Below, piece after piece: positions 398 to 35,779 of a stretch of 64,000 bases of DNA. The notes beneath the pieces are model-generated. The model saw only the letters and a program-made list of their open reading frames with translations. It had not been told where the DNA came from and made no database searches. The position numbers were made by a program, and so were the translations under genes. How positions within the stretch are numbered: position 1 is the stretch's first letter; the number at the start of each line of letters is the position of its first letter. Origin of the DNA: Akkermansia muciniphila (GTDB lineage Bacteria > Verrucomicrobiota > Verrucomicrobiia > Verrucomicrobiales > Akkermansiaceae); the NCBI GenBank assembly GCA_945888515.1, contig CAMDAD010000006.1:1-64000 (forward strand), read 5' to 3'.

Positions 398-3300
398 TTA
401 CGGAGCGGTCACCTTGAGGCGGGCGAATTTCTTCGTGCCCAGTGGCGCTGGGAACGTGTAGGTCACGTTGCTGCCGGAAACGACAACATTCACGCCCGAG
501 GTTTCCGTGTTCCAGATGCCCGTGAGGGTCTCGGAGGTTTCCACTGAGAAGTCCGTTCCATACACGCCGGCGTAGCCAGTGCCCATGACCCAGGTCACGC
601 TCAGTGCTCCAGCAGTGTTTGTCACTCCGGGTAGCACCGTAAAGCCCGTGGTATTCCCATTGGGACCGCCGAGGAAATACTCGACACCGTTTGCTACGCC
701 GTCGCTATCGTGATCTTCATTCAAGTTGGCACCCGCACCGTTGAGTGCCGCCCATGAGCCGTAACCCGCTTGCTGCAACACCAAGCTGTTACCCACGACT
801 TTCAATTCGTAGCCTGGAACCGGCGCATCGAGGGTTGGCGTGCCGGTGATGCCTGTGGATGAGGTGATCAAGGTATGGCTCGCGGCGCTGGGCGTGCCGC
901 TGATCTTGATCGTGCCCGTAGTCAGGTCGAAACTGCTCGACGATGTGGTAGGCGAGCCGATCTCGAAACTCAGCGAGGCCCCAGCACTCACCGTGATCGG
1001 CGAGGCTTGGCTGCCACCCACGAGAGCCAGCGTGCCTTGACTCACAGAGGTGCTACCGGTGTAGGTATTCGCACCCGATAGAGTCTGTGTGCCTGTGCCC
1101 GTTTTCACCAGAGCAAGCGTCCCATCACTGTTACTGATGACTCCCGTGAAGACCGCGCTCCCGTTGTTGGCACCAAGTGTCAGAGTAGGGGCACCCGTGC
1201 CGCTATCGACAACTCCACTACCGCTCAGGCCGTTGATGGTTTCGTTGAAACCAGCAAGGTTCAGTGTGCCCACACCAGTGCCGTTTGAGCTAATCACTAC
1301 ATTGCCGGTAGCAGCACCGTGAGGGATTTGCTCCGCAGCGCCGAGGTTCAGCGTCGCGCTCTTGCCGGAGGCCGCATTGAGGTTAATGACCGTATCGCCC
1401 GCATAGTCGTTTGGCGTGCCCGCATTGTTCAATGTGACAGTGAAGTTGGTGGCCGCCGCAGCGAGCGAAGTGATGTCTAACACCAATCCACTTGCACCCG
1501 TGACCTGGCCTGTGATCGTAACCTGACCCGCAATGCCGGAGTTCGAGGTAAACGTCGCGGGTGCCAGATTGGCGGTGATTTTCCCGCTCAGCGTGACCGC
1601 CGCATCCACTCGAACGCCGACACGATCGGTGCCGATTGCAGTGTTGAAGACGAGATCGTTTGCGAAAGCGGTGGCGGCACTGAAATAGACGCCTGCCCTG
1701 TCCGTGTTTGCCTGGCCAATGATGACGGGGCCGGTGCCGACCACGCCGCCGTTCGTGCCGTTCAGCAAGAGACGCGTTCCGTTCGTTGCATTGTGAGCGA
1801 GGACGACACCGCCGGAGAAGGTATTGGCGTTGTTGGTGAGGGTAGCAGTAGCGTTACCATTGGCATTGTTCATCACAACCTGCGTCTTGCGAGTGGGACC
1901 ATCAGTCACAAGCAGTGGCAGCGAGTTCGCCGTGATGGGCGCTGTGATAGTCAGAGCATCCGTCAACGCCGGAGAGCCCGGAGCCGTAGCCGTGGAAGCG
2001 TGGGTGCCCGTGCTGGAGTTCGTGAGTGTGTTGCCCTCCACATTCGCAAGGCTGGCCACGGTCTGGCTCGCGCCGAACAAATCAAGCGTGCTGGTGCCGC
2101 TCACGGTCACAGCGGTGGTGGCAGGCAGATTGCCGGCGGTCTGCAAGGTTCCATTCACGACAAGCGCTGAGGGAGATGCCAAGCTGCCTGCCAAACGCAG
2201 GGTGCCGCCGTTTACCGTCGTCGTGCCCGTGTAGGTGTTTGTGCCACCGAGAATGACCGTGCCGTCTCCTCTCTTAAGCAAGGCGGAAGCGGTGGTGTTG
2301 TCGACGATGCCCGAGTTCATGGTCAGCGGATTGCCGACGCTGTTATTCGTGAGCACCAAGTCCCCACCTGCGGTAGCAGGCGTGAGGATGCCGGAATCTG
2401 GTGCCGTGCCCACGGTGAGCGAGCCGGCCGCAGTTGTCATGACGATGGCATCCGTTCTGAGAGTGCCCGCGCTCGTGTCAATCGTGGCAGCGCTGGTGCC
2501 GCCGGAGTCGCTTTGCGTGAGCGTGTTGATCGTCGTAATCGGCGCGCCGAGGGTGATGTTGCCGGGAGAGCCGGATCCCTCGATGATACGGACGTTCGAC
2601 GAGGCCACATCCGCGATGATGCCAGGATTGAGACGGGTGACATCGGCATAGCCCGAGTAAGCGACGATATTTCCACTGCCGTCATTCATGGCGAAATCCG
2701 TGCCCACAAACGCCCAGGTCCCAAGGATGCCGTTGGTGTTTGCCGTGGTGGTCTGGATCACATTGTCGGTCGCCGTGGCGTTGGCGAAATTCACGATACC
2801 ACCCGCATTGCGCGTGATGGCACCGACGTTGAGCACATTCGTTGCTCCTGCGTTGGTGTTCGTGATGGTGGAGAGCCCTGAATTGATCGTGAGGCCGCTG
2901 ACCGATTGCGGTGCCGCGCCGCTGTAAGTGATTGTGCTATTTCCACTGACGAGTGAGCTGAGCGGATTGAGCGTCCCCGTGATCGAGAGTGTGCCACCGT
3001 TGGTAGTAGCCGCTCCCGTGTAGGTGTTCGTGCCGGAGAGGATCAAAGTTCCCGTGCCCGATTTTGTCAGAGCACCACCGCCGTTGACTTCACCGAGGTT
3101 CGAGAGAGTGCCGGACTGGATGACTAGAGCCACTGTGTCTAAGACAGTGCCGATGCTTTTCCCACCCATGTCGAGCGTGCCTCCGCTCAAAGTCACGGTA
3201 GCAGTGCCCGTGCCGCCAACTCCTTTTATCAAGTCCGCAGTGGAGGTGACAGTGCCACCAGTAATTGTCAAACTGCCGGCACCCGCGGTAGCAAGGGTGA

Positions 3301-6300
3301 GTGTGCCCGTGCCAGCATCGGAAAATGCCGTGGATCCACCGAGATTGACCGTGCCGCCACCGATGGTGATACGGTTCGTGGAATTACCCGTGCCTTTGGC
3401 GAAAGCCATGTTGATCGAGCGGATATCGAGGATGCCGCTATCGAAGCGCAAGTCGTTCGTGTTGCCTGCCGTTTTGGCTCCCAGCGATGTGGCAAAAGTA
3501 CCGATCGCGACATCCGCGGTATTTCCCGTGAAGTCAATGACGTTCGCCGTCGTGTAGCCGGTAGATTGGGCGCTTTGCACACCCATATTGACGCTGGCAA
3601 CGCGGGCTGTTCCTAATTGATCGCGTAGGCTAACAGTGCCACCAGTTCCAGCGAAATCTATGACACCGTCATCGCGGGAGCCGGCACCGAGATTGATTAG
3701 GTCTGTCTGAATCGCATTCGTGCCAGCGCCCAGCCAGAGACGTTGTGTCGATCCCGTGGAGCTATTGCCTACCCGAATCGCCGGTGAGGTGATGGAGTTA
3801 GCCCCATTGCTGAGAGTTAAGGACGACGAGTCGGTAGCGCTATTGTCACCTGAGGCTTGGATTACGAAATTGGTAGTAACGGCCGCAGTAAAGGAACTGA
3901 GAGCCGAGAGATCGAGGTGAGCCTCACCGGAAATACTCGTGCCGCTCGCATTGGCTCCCACCGTGATTGTAGCACCATTCACCACCAAGGCGCCACCACC
4001 CGTCATCGTCAAGCGAGTTTGTGCCGCATCCGCCGTGTTAGACATGGTCAAGCCCCCGTTGATGGTCAAAGTCTCCGCAGCACCGATCAGGATGTTACTC
4101 GCGGATGCCGAATTGGTTTGCACGGTGAGAGCGCCGTTGAAGTTGGCACTGACAGAACTCAGATCGAGCGTGCCTACATTCGCGCTTCCCATAGACGCAC
4201 CAAAGGTAAGTCCACCCGCAAGGATTTGATCGTTGGTAGCAAAGAGCAATGTACCCTGATCGATGGTGGTTGCCCCAGTATACGCATTCAGGCCGGATAA
4301 GCTCCACGTACTGGTTCCCGTCTTGCTGACAGATAGGGTATTGAGTCCGTTAGTAATGTCGCCAGAGATCGCGTTGCCGGTGCTCTGTCCACTTAATTCC
4401 AGAGTTTTTGCGTGATTATTGCTACCGATGTTAACCGCCCCGGGGATGAGCAGAGTCGCGGTGGTCGGATTAAGTATGCACGAGCCAGTCGAACCCGCTG
4501 TCAAGTTGATCGATGCCAAGGAAACGGCGGCCGTGCCACTGGTGACAGAAGTGCCGGATTCGATCGTCCAGGTATTGTTAGCCAGATTCGCTGCCCCAAG
4601 TTCATGGGTGATCCCCGCCCCGGGAGTAGCCCGATCCGAAACAATCTTGCCGGGGAAACTGGAGCTAGCACTCAGCACGAAGGGTGCTACCGAAGTATCA
4701 GTTGCCAACTGAAGCGTGCCCGAACCCGCAGCCGTGGAAATCAGCACAAGGCTGGAACTGCTCAAGGCATTCGCATTCGCCGCTACCAAAGTTCCGCCGT
4801 TGAGATTCGTTTCCCCTGTGTAGGTGTTAGCGCCCGACAAAATCACAGTCCCTGCCGTCGTTTTTGTGACACTTCCGCTACCACCCAGACCCGCGGAAAT
4901 GCTTCCACTCTCTAGGTTGTAGGAAGATCCTGTGAGAATACCGGCACTGCCAGTGATCGCCGCGTCATTTTTCAGCGTCACGACGCCCACGGTATCGCTA
5001 TTCGCACCGAGACTCAGCACTGCGGTAGCACCATCCACGGTAACAGCTCCGCTGTCGGGAAGGGTGTTGCTAGTGTCGCCAAGCGCGAGCGTGCCCCCAT
5101 TGATGAGAGTGCCACCCGAGAAAGAATGATTGGCCGTTGCGAGCGTCAAAGTGCCCAAATTCGTCGAAAGAAGATTCAAGCCACCGCTGCCACCAATCGC
5201 ACCTGCGCCCGAGATGGTGTAGTTGCGCCCCGATGTGTTCATGGTTACCGCCACCGGCGAAACAGCGCTGGCAAGAGTGATTTGAGGATTTCCGGTAGCA
5301 CCGGCCGCATCACCCAACAGCACCGTATCCAAGGTGTCGACATAGGCAGTGGGGGCTAGGGTCGAGTCTACCCAGTTCGGAGTGGAAGTGTCCCACGCAC
5401 CATTTCCCGTATTCCAAGAAATCGGCGCTCCCGAGGCATTGTTCGTCACAGTGAGGAACAAGGTATTGGAGGATATGCTGAACGTTCCAGCCAGACGGTG
5501 GGTGCGTAAAGTGAAGGCGGAGGCATTCACCGGTCCGGTGCCCGACCATGTGATCAGCGGATACGTTTGATTCACCAGCATCGAGGGAACCGAGGCTCCT
5601 GCCAATTCCACACCCGGTGTCGTTCCGATGTCAAAATTGGTGACGCTAATGGGCGCGACCGTGGTGCTAGGTAACGTGCTTCCGTAGTCTGCGAGCACTG
5701 TTCCGTTATTTTGCAATGTCAAATTGCCAGCGTTCACCCACTGACCGTCAGTCGCTGCTACCAGTGCTCCGGCTTTCGCACCATCGGCAACAGTAACGTT
5801 CGTGGCAGCAGATACGGCCGATGAAAAACGAAGCGCTCCCGCGTTTACCGTCGTTCCACCAACATAGGTATTGAGCCCGGAAAGCGTCAAGGTGCCGAGC
5901 CCCGTCTTCGTCAAACCGCCCGTGCCAGCATTCAACAAGGCATCGTTGATCGCAAACGAATTTCCATTCGTGTCAATCTTCGCACCACCATCCTTCACAT
6001 TCAACGTCAGTCCAGAACCGATGCTGAAAGCTGATCCGCCCGCGACGAACTGACCGCCATTGAAATTGAAAATCCGGTTGGTGCCACCGCTCGAAGTAAG
6101 CGAGGAAACGGTCAGCGTGCCACCGTCAAGATTCACAGTGCCGGTATTGCCGACAAAGGTGCCCAGGTTGTAGTCCAGATTGTGGATCGTTGCCGAACCT
6201 GCGGTTAGGGTCAGGTTCGCGGTGCCAGCTGCTGTTCCACCATTGCCCAACTGCGTTTTGCCGCTGTTGGCCGTATTGATGTAGGAACCTCCGTTGATGA

Positions 6301-30630: not shown

Positions 30631-33600
30631 GTGGCAGAGATCGACTCCATTGAAACTTTCATTTCCCGCTGGCAAAACTCCGGCGCCGCCGAACGCGCGA
30701 ACTACCAAATGTTCCTCTCGGAGCTCTGCACTTTGCTCGATGTCCCGCGCCCGGATCCCACATCGCCCGACCCGGAAAAAAATCTCCACGTCTTCGATCG
30801 CGCCATCACCCGCGTGAACCCGGATGGCAGCTCGGTCACGAATTACATCGATTGGTACAAAGCCGGCCATTTCGTCCTCGAAACGAAACAAGGCGTCTCT
30901 GCCGAGGAACCCACCACCCAGAAAATCGGTCACGGCAAGCGCGGCAGCGTCGCGTTCGATAAAGCCCTCGAACGCGCCTACCACCAAGGCCGCGATTACA
31001 TCACCCATCTCCCCACCGCCCACGGACGCCCGCCATTCCTCATCGTCTGCGATGTCGGCCACTCGCTCGACCTCTATGCCGAGTTCACCTGCACCGGCGG
31101 ACGCTACGAACGCTTCCCCGATCCGAAGCACCACCGCATCCTGCTCACCGATCTCCGCCGACCAGAAATCCGCGAACGCCTGCAACTAGTCTTCACCGAT
31201 CCTCATTCGCTCGATCCCTCCAAAAAAGCTGCCGAGGTCACGCGCGATATCGCCACGCGCCTCGCCAAGCTCGCCAAGTCCCTCGAAAGCAAAGGCCACA
31301 ATCCCCAGGTCATCGCCGGATTCCTCCAGCGCTGCCTTTTCACCATGTTCGCCGAGGACATCGGCCTGCTCCCCGAAGACGGCTTCCGCAATCTCATCGA
31401 AAAAACCCGCGCCAATCCCCACGGTTTCCCCGTCCTCGTCTCCGGCCTGTGGAAGGAAATGGCGACGGGCACACAATACTCCGCCCTCCTCTTCCAGGAA
31501 ATCGCCCACTTCGATGGCGGCCTCTTTGAAAACACCAGCGCCCTCCCGCTCGATGCCGCAGAGCTCACGATGCTCGCCGATGCCGCCGCCACGGATTGGT
31601 CCGGCGTGGAGCCCTCCATCTTCGGCACTCTGCTCACCCGCGCGCTGGATTCCCGCGAACGCCACAAGCTCGGTGCCGAATACACGCCGCGCTCTTACGT
31701 CGAACGCCTCATCCGCCCCACCATCCTCGATCCTCTCCGCGATGAATGGGAAGCCACCCGCATCGCCGCTGCCAAGCTCCATTCCGATGCCGAATCGCTC
31801 GAAGCCCGTGCCGATTCCTTGCAAGAAAAAATCGCCACCCTCGGCGTCACCAAGGAAGCCCAGGCAATCGGTGCCGAACGCACCAAAATCCTCGCCGATG
31901 CGAAAAAAATCGACGCCCAGGCGCTCCAGCTCGTCACCGCCTTCCACCGCCATCTCTGCTCGCTGAAAATCCTCGACCCCGCCTGCGGCACCGCGAATTT
32001 CCTCTACGTCACGCTCGAACACATGAAACGCCTCGAAGCCGAGGTCCTCGAGCTCGTCACCGCCCTCGGCGGCGATGCCACCTTCGAGATGAACGAATAC
32101 AAAGTCCGCCCCGAGCAATTCCTCGGTCTCGAACTCTCCGCCAATGCCGTCGCCATCGCCCAGCTCGTTCTCTGGATCGGCTACTTCCAGTGGCAATACA
32201 AAACCACCGGCAAGGCCGATACCGGCGACCGCCCCCTCCTGCCGAAAACCCAGAGCATCCGCCAGCAAGACGCGGTGCTCTCCTACGATGAACGCATCCC
32301 CCGAAAAAATCCCGAAACCGGCGAAATCCTCACCATCTGGGATGGCCACACCACCAAGCTCCACCCCATCACCGGCAAAGAAGTCCCCGATGAAAGCGCC
32401 CGCACCGTCCTCTTCGATTACCTCAACCCTCGCCGCGCCGAATGGCCGCAAGCGGATTACATCGTCGGCAATCCGCCGTTCATTGGAGCCTCCCGCATGC
32501 GCGATGCCCTAGGCGATGGCTACACTGAGGCCCTGCGAAAAGCATGGAAAGGCGATGTCCCCGAGTCCGCCGATCTCGTCATGTTCTGGTGGGCCAAAGC
32601 CGCCGCCGAGACCGCCGCAGGGAAATGCCGTCGTTTCGGCTACATCACCACCAACTCCATCCACCAAACCTTCAACCGCCGCGTCATGGAGCCCTTCGTG
32701 GCGGCGGATTCCATCCGCCAAGCCCCTCTTCATCTCGCCTACGCCATCCCCGACCACCCCTGGATCGACTCCGCCGACGGTGCCGCCGTAAGAATCGCCA
32801 TGACCGTCGCCGCCCCCGGCAACGCCGAAGGCGTTCTGGATACGGTTACGTTTGAGGATGCCATGGAGCACGGGGAATGCGAGGTAGAATTGAAAAGTCA
32901 ACGAGGACGCCTTGCAAGCAATCTACAAATCGGCTCGGATATAAATTCATCCTACGAGCTTAAAGCTAATTCTGAAATTTGTTGGGAAGGCATGAAGCCA
33001 CACGGCATGGGATTCTTGATAAACCAAGAGCTGGCTGAACAACTAGGATACTGGTCAGATGGCAAGCCAGTGTTGCCATTACGACGTTATTTTAATGGTC
33101 GGGACATCAGCGACAAACCTAGAGAGCTTTACGCAATCGATTTTTTCGGACTATCGGAAGACGAAGCCAAAACTCAACATGCTTCTCTTTATCAACACTG
33201 CTTGATCAATGTAAAACCAGAGAGAGATCAAAATAATCGTGAAACATATCGGGTCAATTGGTGGTTTTTTGGCGAACCTCGTCGAAAGAATCGTCCTACG
33301 TTGTCAGCTTTATCTCGTTTCATTGTTACGGTCAAAACAGCCAAACACCGTGCCTTCGTTTTCCTTGATAAAAATTGTCTCCCAGACAGCAAGTTAATAG
33401 CTGTTGCTTCCGATGACCCATTTATTTTGGGCGTTTTATCATCATGCATTCATGCTTTATGGACACTGCGTATCGGTTCACATTTGGGCGTTGGGAATGA
33501 CCCGACTTACGTTGTCGGCTCATCATTCAACAAATACCCCTTCCCCGCCGTGGAAGAAGGAGACTTGAAGCAACGCATCCGCGATCTCGGCGAGCGCTTG

Positions 33601-34299
33601 GACGCGCACCGCAAGCGGCAATTGGAGCAGCATCCCGGCCTCACCATGACGGGCATGTACAACGTACTCGAAAAACTCCGCAGCGAAGAACCCCTGAACG
33701 CCAAAGAAAAAACCATCCACGACCAAGGCCTCGTCACCCTCCTCAAGCAACTCCACGACGACCTCGATGCCGCCGTACTCGAAGCCTATGGCTGGAGTGA
33801 CATCACCGAAGCCCTACTGGCAATGCCAAACATGTATGACTTTGAGCACAGTTCCATCATCCTTGTCGATCTGGACGTGAATCAATTTGATGCACACATG
33901 AAAGCCTGCAAGGAGCGTATCGAGCAAGAGCTTCTGAGTCGTCTCGTAGCCCTCAACCACGAACGCGCCGCCGAAGAAAAGCGCGGCCTCATCCGCTGGC
34001 TCCGCCCCGACTACCAAAACCCCACCGCCACAAAAGCCATCCAACCCACCCTCACCGGCACCGAAACCGAGATTTCAACCAAATCAAAAATCAAAAATCA
34101 GCAATCGGAAATCGTCAATGACCCCATCGAGTGGCCCGAACGTCTCCCCGACCAAGTCAACATCATCCGCCACCTCCTCACCCAAACCCCTACCGCCACC
34201 TCAGAAGAACTCTCCCAACACTTCGGCCGCAAAACCCAAAAACGCACCGACCAAATCCAAGCCATTCTCGAAACCCTGAAGGCATTAGGGCAGATCTAA
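30631..34299 (+). CDS. Single-chain restriction-modification enzyme, MmeI-like (type IIG/IIL)
   Basis: 1222-residue fused endonuclease-methyltransferase. Near the N-terminus D74-X9-E84-T-K86 (DWYKAGHFVLETK) has exactly the D-X9-E-X-K spacing of the MmeI nuclease. A helical linker follows (LTRALDSRERHKLGAEYTPRSYVERLI). Methyltransferase motif I is LDPACGTANFL (about residue 446) and motif IV is NPPF at 614-617, an N6-adenine type. A target-recognition domain follows at about 740-970 and a winged-helix-like tail at the end (TATSEELSQHFGRKTQKRTDQI). One protein should both methylate and cut, so no separate subunit is needed, and none is seen. The recognition part is visibly more AT-rich than either side. 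The start is GTG. The stop is 8 bp from a palindromic repeat module. Confidence 0.93.
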   Translation: MAEIDSIETFISRWQNSGAAERANYQMFLSELCTLLDVPRPDPTSPDPEKNLHVFDRAITRVNPDGSSVTNYIDWYKAGHFVLETKQGVSAEEPTTQKIGHGKRGSVAFDKALERAYHQGRDYITHLPTAHGRPPFLIVCDVGHSLDLYAEFTCTGGRYERFPDPKHHRILLTDLRRPEIRERLQLVFTDPHSLDPSKKAAEVTRDIATRLAKLAKSLESKGHNPQVIAGFLQRCLFTMFAEDIGLLPEDGFRNLIEKTRANPHGFPVLVSGLWKEMATGTQYSALLFQEIAHFDGGLFENTSALPLDAAELTMLADAAATDWSGVEPSIFGTLLTRALDSRERHKLGAEYTPRSYVERLIRPTILDPLRDEWEATRIAAAKLHSDAESLEARADSLQEKIATLGVTKEAQAIGAERTKILADAKKIDAQALQLVTAFHRHLCSLKILDPACGTANFLYVTLEHMKRLEAEVLELVTALGGDATFEMNEYKVRPEQFLGLELSANAVAIAQLVLWIGYFQWQYKTTGKADTGDRPLLPKTQSIRQQDAVLSYDERIPRKNPETGEILTIWDGHTTKLHPITGKEVPDESARTVLFDYLNPRRAEWPQADYIVGNPPFIGASRMRDALGDGYTEALRKAWKGDVPESADLVMFWWAKAAAETAAGKCRRFGYITTNSIHQTFNRRVMEPFVAADSIRQAPLHLAYAIPDHPWIDSADGAAVRIAMTVAAPGNAEGVLDTVTFEDAMEHGECEVELKSQRGRLASNLQIGSDINSSYELKANSEICWEGMKPHGMGFLINQELAEQLGYWSDGKPVLPLRRYFNGRDISDKPRELYAIDFFGLSEDEAKTQHASLYQHCLINVKPERDQNNRETYRVNWWFFGEPRRKNRPTLSALSRFIVTVKTAKHRAFVFLDKNCLPDSKLIAVASDDPFILGVLSSCIHALWTLRIGSHLGVGNDPTYVVGSSFNKYPFPAVEEGDLKQRIRDLGERLDAHRKRQLEQHPGLTMTGMYNVLEKLRSEEPLNAKEKTIHDQGLVTLLKQLHDDLDAAVLEAYGWSDITEALLAMPNMYDFEHSSIILVDLDVNQFDAHMKACKERIEQELLSRLVALNHERAAEEKRGLIRWLRPDYQNPTATKAIQPTLTGTETEISTKSKIKNQQSEIVNDPIEWPERLPDQVNIIRHLLTQTPTATSEELSQHFGRKTQKRTDQIQAILETLKALGQI
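34081..34122 (+). repeat. Degenerate heptanucleotide repeat inside the RM gene
   Basis: Six consecutive 7-mers, the first two identical (AAATCAA) and the next four variants of the form NAATCNN or CAATGAC. They encode a Lys/Ser/Asn/Gln-rich linker (KSKIKNQQSEIVND) between the recognition region and the C-terminal tail. Since 7 is not a multiple of 3, gain or loss of a unit would shift the frame. Confidence 0.6.
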
Positions 34300-34307
34300 C
34301 CACCCCC

Positions 34308-34670
34308 GTGCGCCCCTACAGGGCGCGAATGAATTTGGGGGCCGCACGATACCAGGGTGCCTGATCGGCACCCTTCGCTATCACCGTTAGCCCCCATGGG
34401 GCATAAAGGCATCCTTTGCTATCACCGTTGGACCCCATGGGGCATAAAGGCATCCTTCGCTATCACCGTGGACCCCGTTGGGGCCGAAGGCATTTGCGAT
34501 CCCCATGGACCCTTCGAGCCAAAGGCATCCGTAACACCGTTGCCCCCATTGGGGCCGAGGGCACAATCTCCCATGCCCCATCGGGGCATACGGTGATAGC
34601 GAAGGGTGATTTTGAAAAAATTACCCTGGTAACCATCACAAAACAATTTTCGCGCCCTGTAGGGGCGCAC
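34308..34670. repeat. Composite palindromic module 1 (complete)
   Basis: Outer arms GTGCGCCCCTACAGGGCGCG (34308-34327) and its perfect reverse complement (34651-34670) enclose inner arms of 19 bp (34369-34387 and 34590-34608), also perfect. Each outer arm is itself a small hairpin (GCGCCC/GGGCGC). A further hairpin has arms AGGGTGCC (34354-34361) and GGCACCCT (34367-34374). The centre holds five or six units of roughly 35-40 nt around CCCCATTGGGG-like palindromes with AAAGGCATCC tails. The module starts 8 bp after the RM stop codon. Confidence 0.9.
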
Positions 34671-34710
34671 GGAACCTTCCCCAACACCGCATGGCCCCAT
34701 CACCCACCAC

Positions 34711-34917
34711 GCGCCCCTACAGGGCGCGAATGAATTTGGGGGCCGCGCGATACCAGGGTGCCTGATCGGCACCCTTCGCTATCACCGTGAACCCCATTGG
34801 GGCCAAAGGCATCCGTGGCACTATGAACCCCATTGGGGCCAAAGACATTTGCGATCCCCATGGACCCATTGGGGCCGAACGCATCCGTGGCACCGTTGAC
34901 CCCGTTGGGGCCGAAAT
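34711..34917. repeat. Composite palindromic module 2 (right arm missing)
   Basis: Same left arm, AGGGTGCC/GGCACCCT hairpin, CACCCTTCGCTATCACCGT segment and central CCCCATTGGGG units as module 1. The expected reverse-complement right arm is absent. The sequence changes to an unrelated AT-richer leader about 70 bp before the transposase start, as if the transposase gene had replaced the right end. Confidence 0.88.
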
Positions 34918-34987
34918 CATTTAACAATCACCACCTCACCCTCATTTCTCCTTGATCTCACCGTTAAGATTTTCTATCCGTCACTCT

Positions 34988-35440
34988 ATGCCTCAATCCC
35001 TCTCCAACATCCTCGTACATCTGGTGTTTTCCACCCATCAACGCACGCCATGGATTGCGGATGACTGGCGCGATGACCTTCACGGCTACATCGGGGGCAT
35101 CGTCCGCAGACACGGCTCTGACCTACTCGCCGCGGGATCGGTGGAGGATCACATTCATCTCTTGTTCGCCCTTCCACGAACCATTTCCCCGGCGGAAATC
35201 ACCAAAGAAATCAAATCGGGTTCCAGCCGTTGGGTGCATGAATCGCCATCACGACCTCGCGATTTCCGCTGGCAGTCGGGCTATGCCTCATTTTCCCTCA
35301 GCCCCGGCCACAAGAAAGCCGTGATCGAATACATTGGTAACCAACGTGAGCATCATCGCACCACCACATTCCAAGAAGAATACCGGAAACTCCTCAAAAA
35401 ATACGACATCGATTACGATGAACGATACGTCTGGGAATAA
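34988..35440 (+). CDS. IS200/IS605-like Y1 HUH transposase (RAYT-like)
   Basis: 150 residues from the ATG at 34988; a longer frame from 34952 adds unconserved residues. The HUH pair is His55-X-His57 in SVEDHIHLLFAL and the probable nucleophile is Tyr115 in AVIEYIGNQREHH. The sequence from SLSNILVHLVFSTHQR to the DYDERYVWE end follows the single-domain Y1 transposase family closely. Such enzymes nick single-stranded hairpin ends. No TnpB partner is present. It is flanked on both sides by large palindromic modules that look like its DNA substrate, in the manner of REP-associated tyrosine transposases. The gene is intact, so activity is possible. Confidence 0.93.
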   Translation: MPQSLSNILVHLVFSTHQRTPWIADDWRDDLHGYIGGIVRRHGSDLLAAGSVEDHIHLLFALPRTISPAEITKEIKSGSSRWVHESPSRPRDFRWQSGYASFSLSPGHKKAVIEYIGNQREHHRTTTFQEEYRKLLKKYDIDYDERYVWE

Positions 35441-35448
35441 CCCCTCCC

Positions 35449-35725
35449 GTGCGCCCCTACAGGGCGCCAATGAATTTTGGGGGCCGCGCGATACCAGGGT
35501 GCCTGATCGGCACCCTTCGCTATCACCGTGGACCCCTTTGGGGCCGAAGGCATCCGTGGCCCCGCTGGCCCCATTGGAACCAAAGGCACATTCTCCCATG
35601 CCCCATCGGGGCATACGGTGATAGCGAAGGGTGATTTTGAAAAAATTACCCTGGAAAGGGTGATTTTGAAAAAATTACCCTGGTAACCACGACAAAAAAA
35701 CATCCCGCGCCCTGTAGGGGCGCAC
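35449..35725. repeat. Composite palindromic module 3 (complete)
   Basis: Begins 8 bp after the transposase stop with the same GTGCGCCCC left arm and ends at 35725 with its reverse complement (CCTGTAGGGGCGCAC). It also has the inner CACCCTTCGC...GCGAAGGGTG pair. It has only two or three central CCCC-N-GGGG units, against five or six in module 1, so unit number varies between copies. Confidence 0.9.
35627..35683. repeat. Tandem duplication of a 28-bp hairpin unit in module 3
   Basis: Two identical 28-bp units at 35627-35654 and 35656-35683, one base apart. Each unit can fold on itself (AGGGTGATTTT pairing with AAAATTACCCT through one G-T pair). Module 1 carries a single copy of this unit. Confidence 0.85.
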
Positions 35726-35779
35726 AGAATCCGAGTGCCATCTGCCTCCTCCCCCATCCGTAAGCTTGACCAAACTGCA

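What the first reader, a model, noticed from the sequence alone, without database searches (positions are those of the whole stretch)
34300..35730. HUH transposase embedded in long composite palindromic modules (REP/RAYT-like system)
Three modules (34308-34670, 34711-34917, 35449-35725) share the same outer 20-bp arms, inner 19-bp arms, hairpin and central CCCC-N-GGGG units, and a Y1 HUH transposase gene lies between modules 2 and 3. Compared with classic REP elements (about 20-40 nt), these modules are an order of magnitude longer and have nested symmetry: the outer arms pair across the whole module while each arm can also fold alone. Central unit number differs (five to six against two to three). 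The established fact is that IS200/IS605-type enzymes recognise hairpins; that these modules are its substrate is inference.
Basis: partly seen in the sequence, partly recalled or inferred. Interest (0 to 1): 0.8.

Follow-up and report, generated by a model that had tools for sequence, protein, structure and literature searches.

The report
HUH transposase with triple-hairpin flanking repeats
A small DNA-cutting enzyme gene sits among repeated DNA arms that each fold into three hairpins in a row, and the same enzyme and arm pairing recurs across many bacterial phyla, so these arms are probably the missing partner of an enzyme group thought to have none.

Summary
The palindromic modules are real, but module 2 has only its left half. 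They resolve into five copies of one "arm" of about 80-130 nt: small hairpin A, about 9 nt, a foot (NYAG) with larger hairpin B, about 22 nt, small hairpin C. Arms lie in inverted orientations with extra A-type units between.

The gene is a Y1 HUH transposase with an IS608/ISDra2 core fold (Z 15). It carries the published signature of TnpAY1 "subclass 1.2" (DH[IV]H, WQ, Y---Q--HH), which was reported to have no REP partner.

The pairing is general. Inverted repeats span the gene in 61 of 85 loci, against 0 of 255 control windows. A covariance model not trained on the window's array finds its five arms and nothing else in 64 kb, and hits 76 of 80 named loci (57 of 61 held out) in about eight phyla. 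In 97 genomes (the window's own and 96 relatives), all 64 with the gene carry arms, against 11 of 33 without. Arms are also dispersed: 85 in a single-contig genome with three genes.

Best reading: a REP/REPIN-like ssDNA system run by an IS200-sister transposase, with a three-hairpin unit. Cleavage is inferred. A new variant of a known kind.

The parts
34988..35440 (+). Y1 HUH transposase gene (150 aa), subclass 1.2 signature: HIH at 55-57, WQ at 95-96, presumed catalytic Y115 in YIGNQREHH
   Evidence: Pfam Y1_Tnp 76.8 bits over residues 5-119; NCBIfam transpos_IS200 57.5 bits, cut-off 55; invariant columns in A1 and A8; AlphaFold model mean pLDDT 89.2, IS608 TnpA Z 15.0 over residues 1-108
34306..34405 (-).
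   Evidence: covariance model R1 hit 34312-34402(-) 27.4 bits E 0.001, window array not in training; ssDNA fold z -4.2
34573..34672 (+). Arm 2 (A-B-C), right half of module 1; foot ATAG
   Evidence: R1 hit 34575-34666(+) 37.0 bits E 6e-6; fold z -4.1
34711..34806 (-). Arm 3 (A-B-C on - strand), the only arm of module 2
   Evidence: R1 hit 34713-34803(-) 26.4 bits E 0.0017; fold z -3.1
35447..35546 (-). Arm 4 (A-B-C on - strand), left half of module 3, begins after 6 nt behind the tnpA stop codon
   Evidence: R1 hit 35453-35544(-) 24.9 bits E 0.0037; fold z -2.8
35598..35725 (+). Arm 5 (A-B-C), right half of module 3
   Evidence: R1 hit 35600-35721(+) 31.5 bits E 1.1e-4; fold z -6.1
34367..34564 (+). 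Tandem A-type small-hairpin units inside module 1 (period about 41 nt, then degenerate)
   Evidence: TRF 34367-34484, 2.9 copies; repeats D1, D3
34783..34920 (+). Four tandem A-type units (period 36 nt) between arm 3 and tnpA
   Evidence: TRF 34783-34912, 3.6 copies; D3 copies at 34793, 34829, 34865, 34901
35534..35589 (+). Two A-type units inside module 3
   Evidence: D3 copies at 35534 and 35570
35627..35683 (+). Perfect 29-bp tandem duplication of the B hairpin in arm 5
   Evidence: TRF period 29, 2.0 copies, 100%
30631..34299 (+). Neighbour: MmeI-like restriction-modification gene (insertion site, not part of the system)
   Evidence: Pfam MmeI_Mtase 110 bits, MmeI_N, MmeI_hel; 8 loci of related genes from six other genomes hold no R1 arm

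Best explanation
This is a REPtron-like system of a kind not described in the papers seen. A Y1 HUH transposase of the IS200-sister group (TnpAY1 subclass 1.2 signature) is paired with its own family of three-hairpin repeats ('arms': A hairpin - 9 nt - NYAG foot + B hairpin - 22 nt - C hairpin). Proposed working (inferred): when the arm is single-stranded, probably on the lagging-strand template, a TnpA dimer binds the B hairpin, reads the NYAG foot as a guide, and cuts and rejoins with Tyr115. It moves or copies arms, mostly as inverted pairs (ABC-C'B'A'), to other places, as proposed for REPINs. The gene itself often lies inside such a pair. In the window, repeated rounds plus tandem slippage built a mosaic array behind a restriction-modification gene. 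Shown: anatomy, conservation, gene-arm association, dispersed copies, distinct arm families for different genes in one genome, core fold and active-site motifs. Inferred: binding, cleavage, mobility, strand and guide role.
For: Spanning inverted repeats in 61 of 85 loci against 0 of 255 controls and 0 of 425 shuffles. Strong hairpins with a YAG foot: 178 of 269 near the gene, 40 of 304 elsewhere. Hairpin A in 156 of 181 arms (shuffled 25), 7-10 nt from the foot in 145 of those 156; hairpin C in 146 of 181 (shuffled 34). Sequence information is near zero beyond the first base outside A and from about 7 nt past C (70 arms, one a locus). Model R1 at E up to 0.05 hits 76 of 80 named loci (57 of 61 without a training arm), only the five arms in the 64-kb window, and none of the four loci of longer Y1 genes of the same genome. 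Arms in 64 of 64 genomes with tnpA, 11 of 33 without. Dispersal: 85 arms (E up to 0.01) in single-contig genome G063 with three tnpA. Alternating + - + - array with tnpA inside one pair in G077:C63. The three short Y1 genes of the window's genome have differently spelled arms. Foot base -3 follows the tnpA tree: 16 changes against 29.7 shuffled, minimum 22 of 300; with the window label corrected, 16 against 30.1, minimum 23 of 500. Nearest upstream and downstream feet identical in 40 of 57 loci, 9.6 expected. IS608 Z 15.0, TnpAREP 4er8 Z 10.1.
Against: No experiment shows that this protein binds or cuts an arm. Eleven genomes have arms but no tnpA at E up to 1e-6 (G070 and G086, with 29 and 48, are 82-86% complete; G054 with 14 is 96% complete). 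The presence test is partly trivial, because tnpA's own flanking arms count. 24 of 85 loci lack a spanning repeat of score 16, among them the C10 gene of this genome, whose arms lie upstream only; 15 of 104 had no arm within 700 nt by the simple scanner. The window's own arms score low (24.9-37 bits) and their B hairpin starts TAG-CG-AAGGGT instead of TAG-CC, although L089 shows a like start. In the window the arm directly upstream of tnpA points the other way than in the usual ABC-tnpA-C'B'A'. No clean empty site or fresh insertion was found, so mobility is not shown.
Confidence: 0.72

Rival explanations
1. The element is an ordinary IS: an IS200/IS605 relative that moves as a unit (arm - tnpA - arm), and the gene-free arm pairs are its MITEs, made by internal deletion. 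The enzyme is a selfish transposase, not a resident REP processor.
For: Many loci have ABC-tnpA-C'B'A' close to the gene. In G077 and G089 gene-free ABC-C'B'A' pairs have the same layout as the gene-bearing pair. Core fold is IS608-like.
Against: The other two short tnpA copies of the window's genome are only 45-46% identical to the window copy, unlike the 99.4% within-genome identity tabled for IS200 (Quentin et al. 2018, Table 1). Array and mosaic arrangement with many more arms than genes. Ends are inverted, whereas IS608 ends are not (recalled).
Confidence: 0.25
2. The arms act as RNA: transcribed hairpins that stabilise or terminate the mRNA of the neighbouring restriction-modification operon and have nothing to do with the transposase.
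For: The array starts 6 nt behind the stop codon of an MmeI-like gene. REPs are known to act on mRNA (passage of PMC6006769).
Against: Eight loci of related MmeI-type genes from six other genomes hold no R1 arm. Arms follow tnpA across phyla beside varied neighbours. No Rfam family reached its gathering score.
Confidence: 0.04
3. Arms are recombination sites of a cassette system: the enzyme shuffles genes (here restriction-modification genes) flanked by arms, integron-like.
For: All three short Y1 genes of this genome lie in RM loci: MmeI-like, between a Methylase_S and an HsdM gene in C10, and between an HsdM and a YhcG/DUF1016 nuclease gene in C29. In C29 a 62-nt copy of the hsdM 3' end follows modules (L017 2220-2281, 3216-3277, 4522-4583). 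Among named loci RM genes recur next to tnpA: PADLOC Specificity_I up to 4 and MTase_I 3 of 61 upstream genes, MTase_I 3 and MTase_II 2 of 60 downstream (only the 25 commonest families are shown), against none of these and one member each for two REase_I models among 120 control genes (full list).
Against: Most neighbours are not RM genes, and no change of gene order between arms was seen. The hsdM-tail repeats were seen at one locus only and are old (81-82% identical). RM genes are themselves often transferred, so lodging there needs no cassette function.
Confidence: 0.06
4. Arms and tnpA are both just common passengers of variable islands and are not functionally linked.
For: RM genes are over-represented beside the gene; control genes 3 kb or more away also match 18 defence-family models, so the contigs are partly island-like.
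Against: Arms lie within 700 nt on both sides of the gene in 57 of 104 loci, with feet alike on the two sides, and the foot follows the tnpA tree. Scanner density is 17-fold higher near the gene than elsewhere in the same loci. Longer Y1 genes of the same genome have none.
Confidence: 0.03

Closest known systems
TnpAY1 subclass 1.2 (Quentin et al. 2018, PMC6006769; seen: abstract, section 12, first part of section 15, passages)
   Same: DH[IV]H, WQ, Y---Q--HH, length about 150, conserved C-terminal tail, few and divergent copies per genome.
   Different: The paper's table lists REP 'no', and the text says generally no typical terminal structures and mostly Cyanobacteria and Bacteroidetes. Here the arm model hits 76 of 80 named loci, mostly Verrucomicrobiota and Planctomycetota; all eight loci with Bacteroidota titles are hit, one of them a training locus. 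No cyanobacterial locus was among those fetched by name.
REP/BIME/REPIN with TnpAREP (RAYT), REPtrons
   Same: Hairpin with a tetranucleotide at its 5' foot, inverted pairs, arrays, dispersed copies, each gene with its own repeat family, gene inside the array.
   Different: Enzyme is Y---Q (IS200-like), not Y---NP. Foot is NYAG (GTAG the main foot in 10 of 89 loci), not GT[AG]G. The unit has three hairpins at near-fixed spacing instead of one.
IS200/IS605 (IS608, ISDra2)
   Same: Core fold (Z 15.0 and 14.8) and Y---Q motif; hairpins near the ends (recalled).
   Different: Arms are inverted and composite; no near-identical copies in the genome; the two flanking genes are MmeI-like and beta-propeller, not tnpB.
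TIRtrons / TIRYT and GTAG repeats (Di Nocera et al. 2013, PMC3733652; seen: passages, including parts of the abstract)
   Same: Tyrosine transposase genes flanked by long inverted repeats, some with self-complementary tracts and dispersed copies. The verrucomicrobium Opitutus terrae is called highly enriched in GTAG repeats, so some arms with a GTAG foot may have been counted there as REPs.
   Different: Of 26 published TIRYTs, 20 belong to subclass 2.1 and the other six to 2.2 and 2.5. No three-hairpin arm is described in the passages seen.

Membership tests
TnpAY1 subclass 1.2 | HuH motif DH[IV]H and W motif WQ | tested here: met
   DHIH at 54-57, WQ at 95-96; H55, H57, W95, Q96 invariant in 44 sequences
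TnpAY1 subclass 1.2 | Y motif Y---Q--HH | tested here: met
   YIGNQREHH; Y115, Q119, H122, H123 invariant in A1 and A8; loci were themselves picked by this motif
TnpAY1 subclass 1.2 | specific C-terminal domain (30-position model) | tested here: inconclusive
   a conserved tail FQ.EYR..L.KY....DERYVWD follows the Y motif; the published model was not available
TnpAY1 subclass 1.2 | low copy number and low identity between copies | tested here: met
   3 copies, two of them 45-46% identical to the window copy; mean 3.0 copies in the 64 positive genomes, published mean 1.7
TnpAY1 subclass 1.2 | described as without REP or typical terminal structures (descriptive, not a sequence criterion) | tested here: not met
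   arm model hits 76 of 80 named loci
TnpAREP/RAYT class 2 REPtron | Y---NP motif / RAYT model | tested here: not met
   YIGNQ; NCBIfam REP_Tyr_transpos 23.5 bits, cut-off 80
TnpAREP/RAYT class 2 REPtron | 5' GT[AG]G foot at a hairpin | tested here: not met
   commonest foot per locus: CCAG 24, ATAG 20, TCAG 12, TTAG 12, GTAG 10, ACAG 7, GCAG 4 of 89 (only YAG feet were looked for; the window is in CCAG there, but R1 reads its foot as ATAG)
TnpAREP/RAYT class 2 REPtron | repeats flank the gene, occur in inverted pairs and are dispersed | tested here: met
TnpAREP/RAYT class 2 REPtron | enzyme cleaves and rejoins its REP | not testable with these tools
   needs protein
IS200/IS605 insertion sequence | TnpA core fold and Y---Q active site | tested here: met
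   profile match to IS608/ISDra2 chains, fold Z 15.0 over residues 1-108 (the tyrosine helix lies outside that alignment), Y115-Q119 by sequence
IS200/IS605 insertion sequence | near-identical multiple copies | tested here: not met
   three short copies, two of them 45-46% identical to the window copy; assembly is fragmentary
IS200/IS605 insertion sequence | hairpins at both ends in the same orientation | tested here: not met
   arms beside tnpA are mostly inverted; the comparison with IS608 ends is recalled
TIRtron (subclass 2.1) | HTH-bearing C-terminal domain, length about 238 | tested here: not met
   150 aa; only Y1_Tnp in Pfam

The most novel reading that the evidence does not exclude
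REP-like systems evolved a second time, inside the IS200 class. Subclass 1.2 transposases in about eight phyla each maintain a private family of three-hairpin arms read through an NYAG foot, disperse them as inverted pairs, and lodge preferentially in restriction-modification loci.
Probability: 0.45. Interest if true: 0.75.

Novelty: new variant of a known kind. Interest (0 to 1): 0.62.

Why it matters
A published enzyme group of unknown role, said to lack any DNA partner, gains a specific and testable one. The arm is a portable model of ssDNA recognition: near-fixed spacing, variable stems, a short guide-like foot that follows the enzyme's tree. It offers natural enzyme-substrate pairs from many phyla for asking how HUH transposases read hairpins, and it bears on how domesticated REP systems arise from insertion sequences.

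Tried and rejected
Rfam search: only matches below gathering scores, judged chance. Boundaries of the mobile unit from G089 copies: copies share up to 711 nt and are mosaics, so no exact end or target site was fixed. Intergenic location in G063: 13 of 34 arms by crude ORF calls; inconclusive, as spurious ORFs abound. Residues that covary with the foot base (201 tests): several columns associate, but independent pairs on the tree are too few; not claimed. Empty site: eight loci of related MmeI-type genes lack arms, but flanks differ, so only a coarse contrast. Plasmid search: 11 records, two at 39-42% over the full length, nine at 24-28%. Literature: searches listed no paper that I recognised as describing arms beside subclass 1.2 genes; listings and abstract starts only were seen, except the papers named; only open-licence PMC papers are held. 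RepRanger paper (PMC12306157): term search only, no occurrence of RAYT, transposase, Verrucomicrobi- or Planctomycet- in the main text.

Rows dropped before counts: of 112 loci with a gene, six did not match the motif used to find it (named L084, L114, L115, L146; unnamed L053, L077), leaving 106, of which 104 were distinct; 85 of 104 had 500 nt on both sides. Neighbours: 121 of 181 near genes were scanned (all 61 upstream and 60 of 68 downstream genes of named loci; eight short downstream genes left out) and 120 of 173 far genes. The R1 hit count of 76 of 80 is for a hit anywhere in the locus at E up to 0.05 (L094 only at 0.044); some held-out loci (L141, L158) resemble a training locus (L112). 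E-values of R1 are rough, the calibration being short.

Full report
What is there. The window is bases 1-64000 of contig C6 of a 3.36-Mb genome in 54 contigs. Between an MmeI-like restriction-modification gene (30631-34299) and an opposite-strand beta-propeller gene lies the array at 34306-35725.

The gene. 34988-35440 codes for 150 aa. Pfam gives Y1_Tnp (76.8 bits). NCBIfam gives IS200/IS605 transposase just over its cut-off, and the REP-associated model far below its own. The predicted structure (mean pLDDT 89.2) matches IS608 TnpA (Z 15.0, 2.4 A over 108 residues, model residues 1-108), ISDra2 (14.8) and, lower, the REP-associated transposase 4er8 (10.1, residues 5-147). In the best IS608 rows the tyrosine helix is outside the aligned range, so Y115 is assigned by sequence. 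The motifs DHIH, WQ and YIGNQREHH are those of TnpAY1 subclass 1.2 in Table 1 of Quentin et al. 2018, for which the REP column says 'no'.

The arms. In 104 distinct loci of related genes flanks were compared. Inverted repeats with score 16 or more spanning the gene occur in 61 of 85 loci with full 500-nt flanks, 0 of 255 control windows in the same loci and 0 of 425 dinucleotide shuffles; at score 14 or more about 70, 1 and 1. Strong hairpins are dense near the gene (269 in 80.7 kb, 178 with a YAG foot; elsewhere 304 in 504 kb, 40 with it). Around the YAG-footed hairpin B, hairpin A lies upstream in 156 of 181 cases (shuffled 25), in 145 of them 7-10 nt from the foot, and hairpin C downstream in 146 (shuffled 34), in 112 of them 17-25 nt away. 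Loops are asymmetric between strands: AAC or AAA are commonest in A, GAA in C, AAC in B, which fits structure on one strand of ssDNA. That GNA-type DNA triloops are unusually stable is recalled. In 70 arms, one a locus, sequence information is near zero beyond the first base outside A and from about 7 nt past C.

Model test. A covariance model from 27 arms (R1; no arm of the window's array included, one of another contig of its genome) found in the window exactly five places at E up to 0.05, all in 34312-35721, E 6e-6 to 0.0037. It hit 76 of 80 named loci; the four missed are L110, L124, L130 and L131, and of the 61 loci not used in training 57 were hit. It found nothing in the four loci that hold the longer Y1 genes of the same genome (L019-L022). 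The window arms therefore read C'B'A' - A units - ABC | C'B'A' - A units | tnpA | C'B'A' - A units - ABC.

Genome distribution. In 97 genomes (the window's own and 96 relatives), all 64 with tnpA at E up to 1e-6 have arms at E up to 0.001 and 11 of 33 without do (Fisher p 6e-14); medians are 23 and 0 arms, with at most 48 candidates scored per genome. Within the eight genera that hold both kinds, 35 of 41 genomes agree (permutation mean 26.6, p 2e-4). Flanking arms make part of this trivial, and eight of the 64 genomes had given an arm to the model; dispersal does not depend on that. Single-contig genome G063 has 85 arms at E up to 0.01 and three tnpA genes. The window's genome has 33, of which 29 are listed and 14 of these 29 lie in the three tnpA clusters. 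In G077 the arms alternate + - + - with tnpA inside one pair.

Pairing of gene and arm. The three short Y1 genes of the window's genome have differently spelled arms; those of the C10 gene lie upstream only. Nearest feet upstream and downstream agree in 40 of 57 loci (9.6 expected). The C/T at foot position -3 needs 16 changes on the tnpA tree against 29.7 in shuffles (16 against 30.1 after relabelling the window). The tree is weakly supported inside (19 of 101 inner branches starred), and near-copies help such clustering.

Place of insertion. Eight loci of related MmeI-type genes from six other genomes hold no arm, so the array is an arrival, not a part of the RM gene. The C10 gene lies between Methylase_S and HsdM genes, the C29 gene between HsdM and a YhcG/DUF1016 nuclease gene. 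Among named loci PADLOC shows Specificity_I in up to 4 and MTase_I in 3 of 61 upstream genes, MTase_I in 3 and MTase_II in 2 of 60 downstream genes; Pfam shows Methylase_S 4, N6_Mtase 3, ResIII 3 and N6_Mtase 3, ResIII 2, Eco57I 2 (Eco57I and N6_Mtase can hit one protein). In 120 control genes none of the first three PADLOC groups matched, and two REase_I models matched one member each. This is suggestive, not a designed test.

What it works like and what it is. It works like a REPtron: hairpin with tetranucleotide foot, inverted pairs, dispersed copies, one private repeat family per gene. It is not a class 2 RAYT: the Y motif and foot differ. It is not a typical IS200: no near-identical copies, inverted composite ends. 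It carries the subclass 1.2 signature, with arms that the description of that subclass lacks. A likely reason they were missed, by my inference: the published automatic search asked for GT[AG]G feet, and GTAG is the main foot in only 10 of 89 loci here. Against priority: GTAG repeats were already reported as abundant in the verrucomicrobium Opitutus terrae, and some of those may be arms.

Limits. No activity is shown. Phyla are from record titles of mostly metagenome-assembled genomes. Arms used for the model were selected for perfect stems. No locus named as cyanobacterial was examined. The literature library lacks most subscription papers, so priority cannot be claimed beyond the searches named.

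Noticed in passing
L017 (G000:C29) 2220-2281, 3216-3277, 4522-4583: The last 62 nt of hsdM recur downstream of modules at 81-82% identity, with tnpA and then a YhcG/DUF1016 nuclease gene between modules; looks cassette-like or like repeated unequal recombination.
   Followed up: partly
L018 (G000:C14) about 2820-3050: Two half modules with the window's arm sequence, about 50 nt apart, and no transposase gene seen in the stretch read: the closest other copy of this arm family found in the genome.
   Followed up: partly
L046 (G000:C22) about 996-1170: A window-type start (GATAG + CGAAGGGT behind a small hairpin) directly followed by an arm of another spelling: mixed arm families side by side.
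   Followed up: no
window 35627-35683: Perfect 29-bp tandem duplication of the B hairpin in arm 5, giving a hairpin that can pair with its copy.
   Followed up: no
G000 contigs C10 start, C7 start, C23 end, C29 end: Arms lie at or near contig ends, so arrays probably broke the assembly and arm counts may be underestimates.
   Followed up: no
L012-L015 / L019-L022 (G000 C27, C16, C7, C12): Four longer Y1 genes (open frames of 370-382 aa) in the same genome have no R1 arm in the stretches fetched.
   Followed up: partly
C10 and C29 loci of G000, window 30631-34299: All three short Y1 genes of this genome sit next to or inside restriction-modification loci.
   Followed up: partly
G022:C47:192385-193272: Tandem run of nine listed arms all on one strand at a regular 101-nt spacing, unlike the alternating arrays elsewhere.
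   Followed up: no
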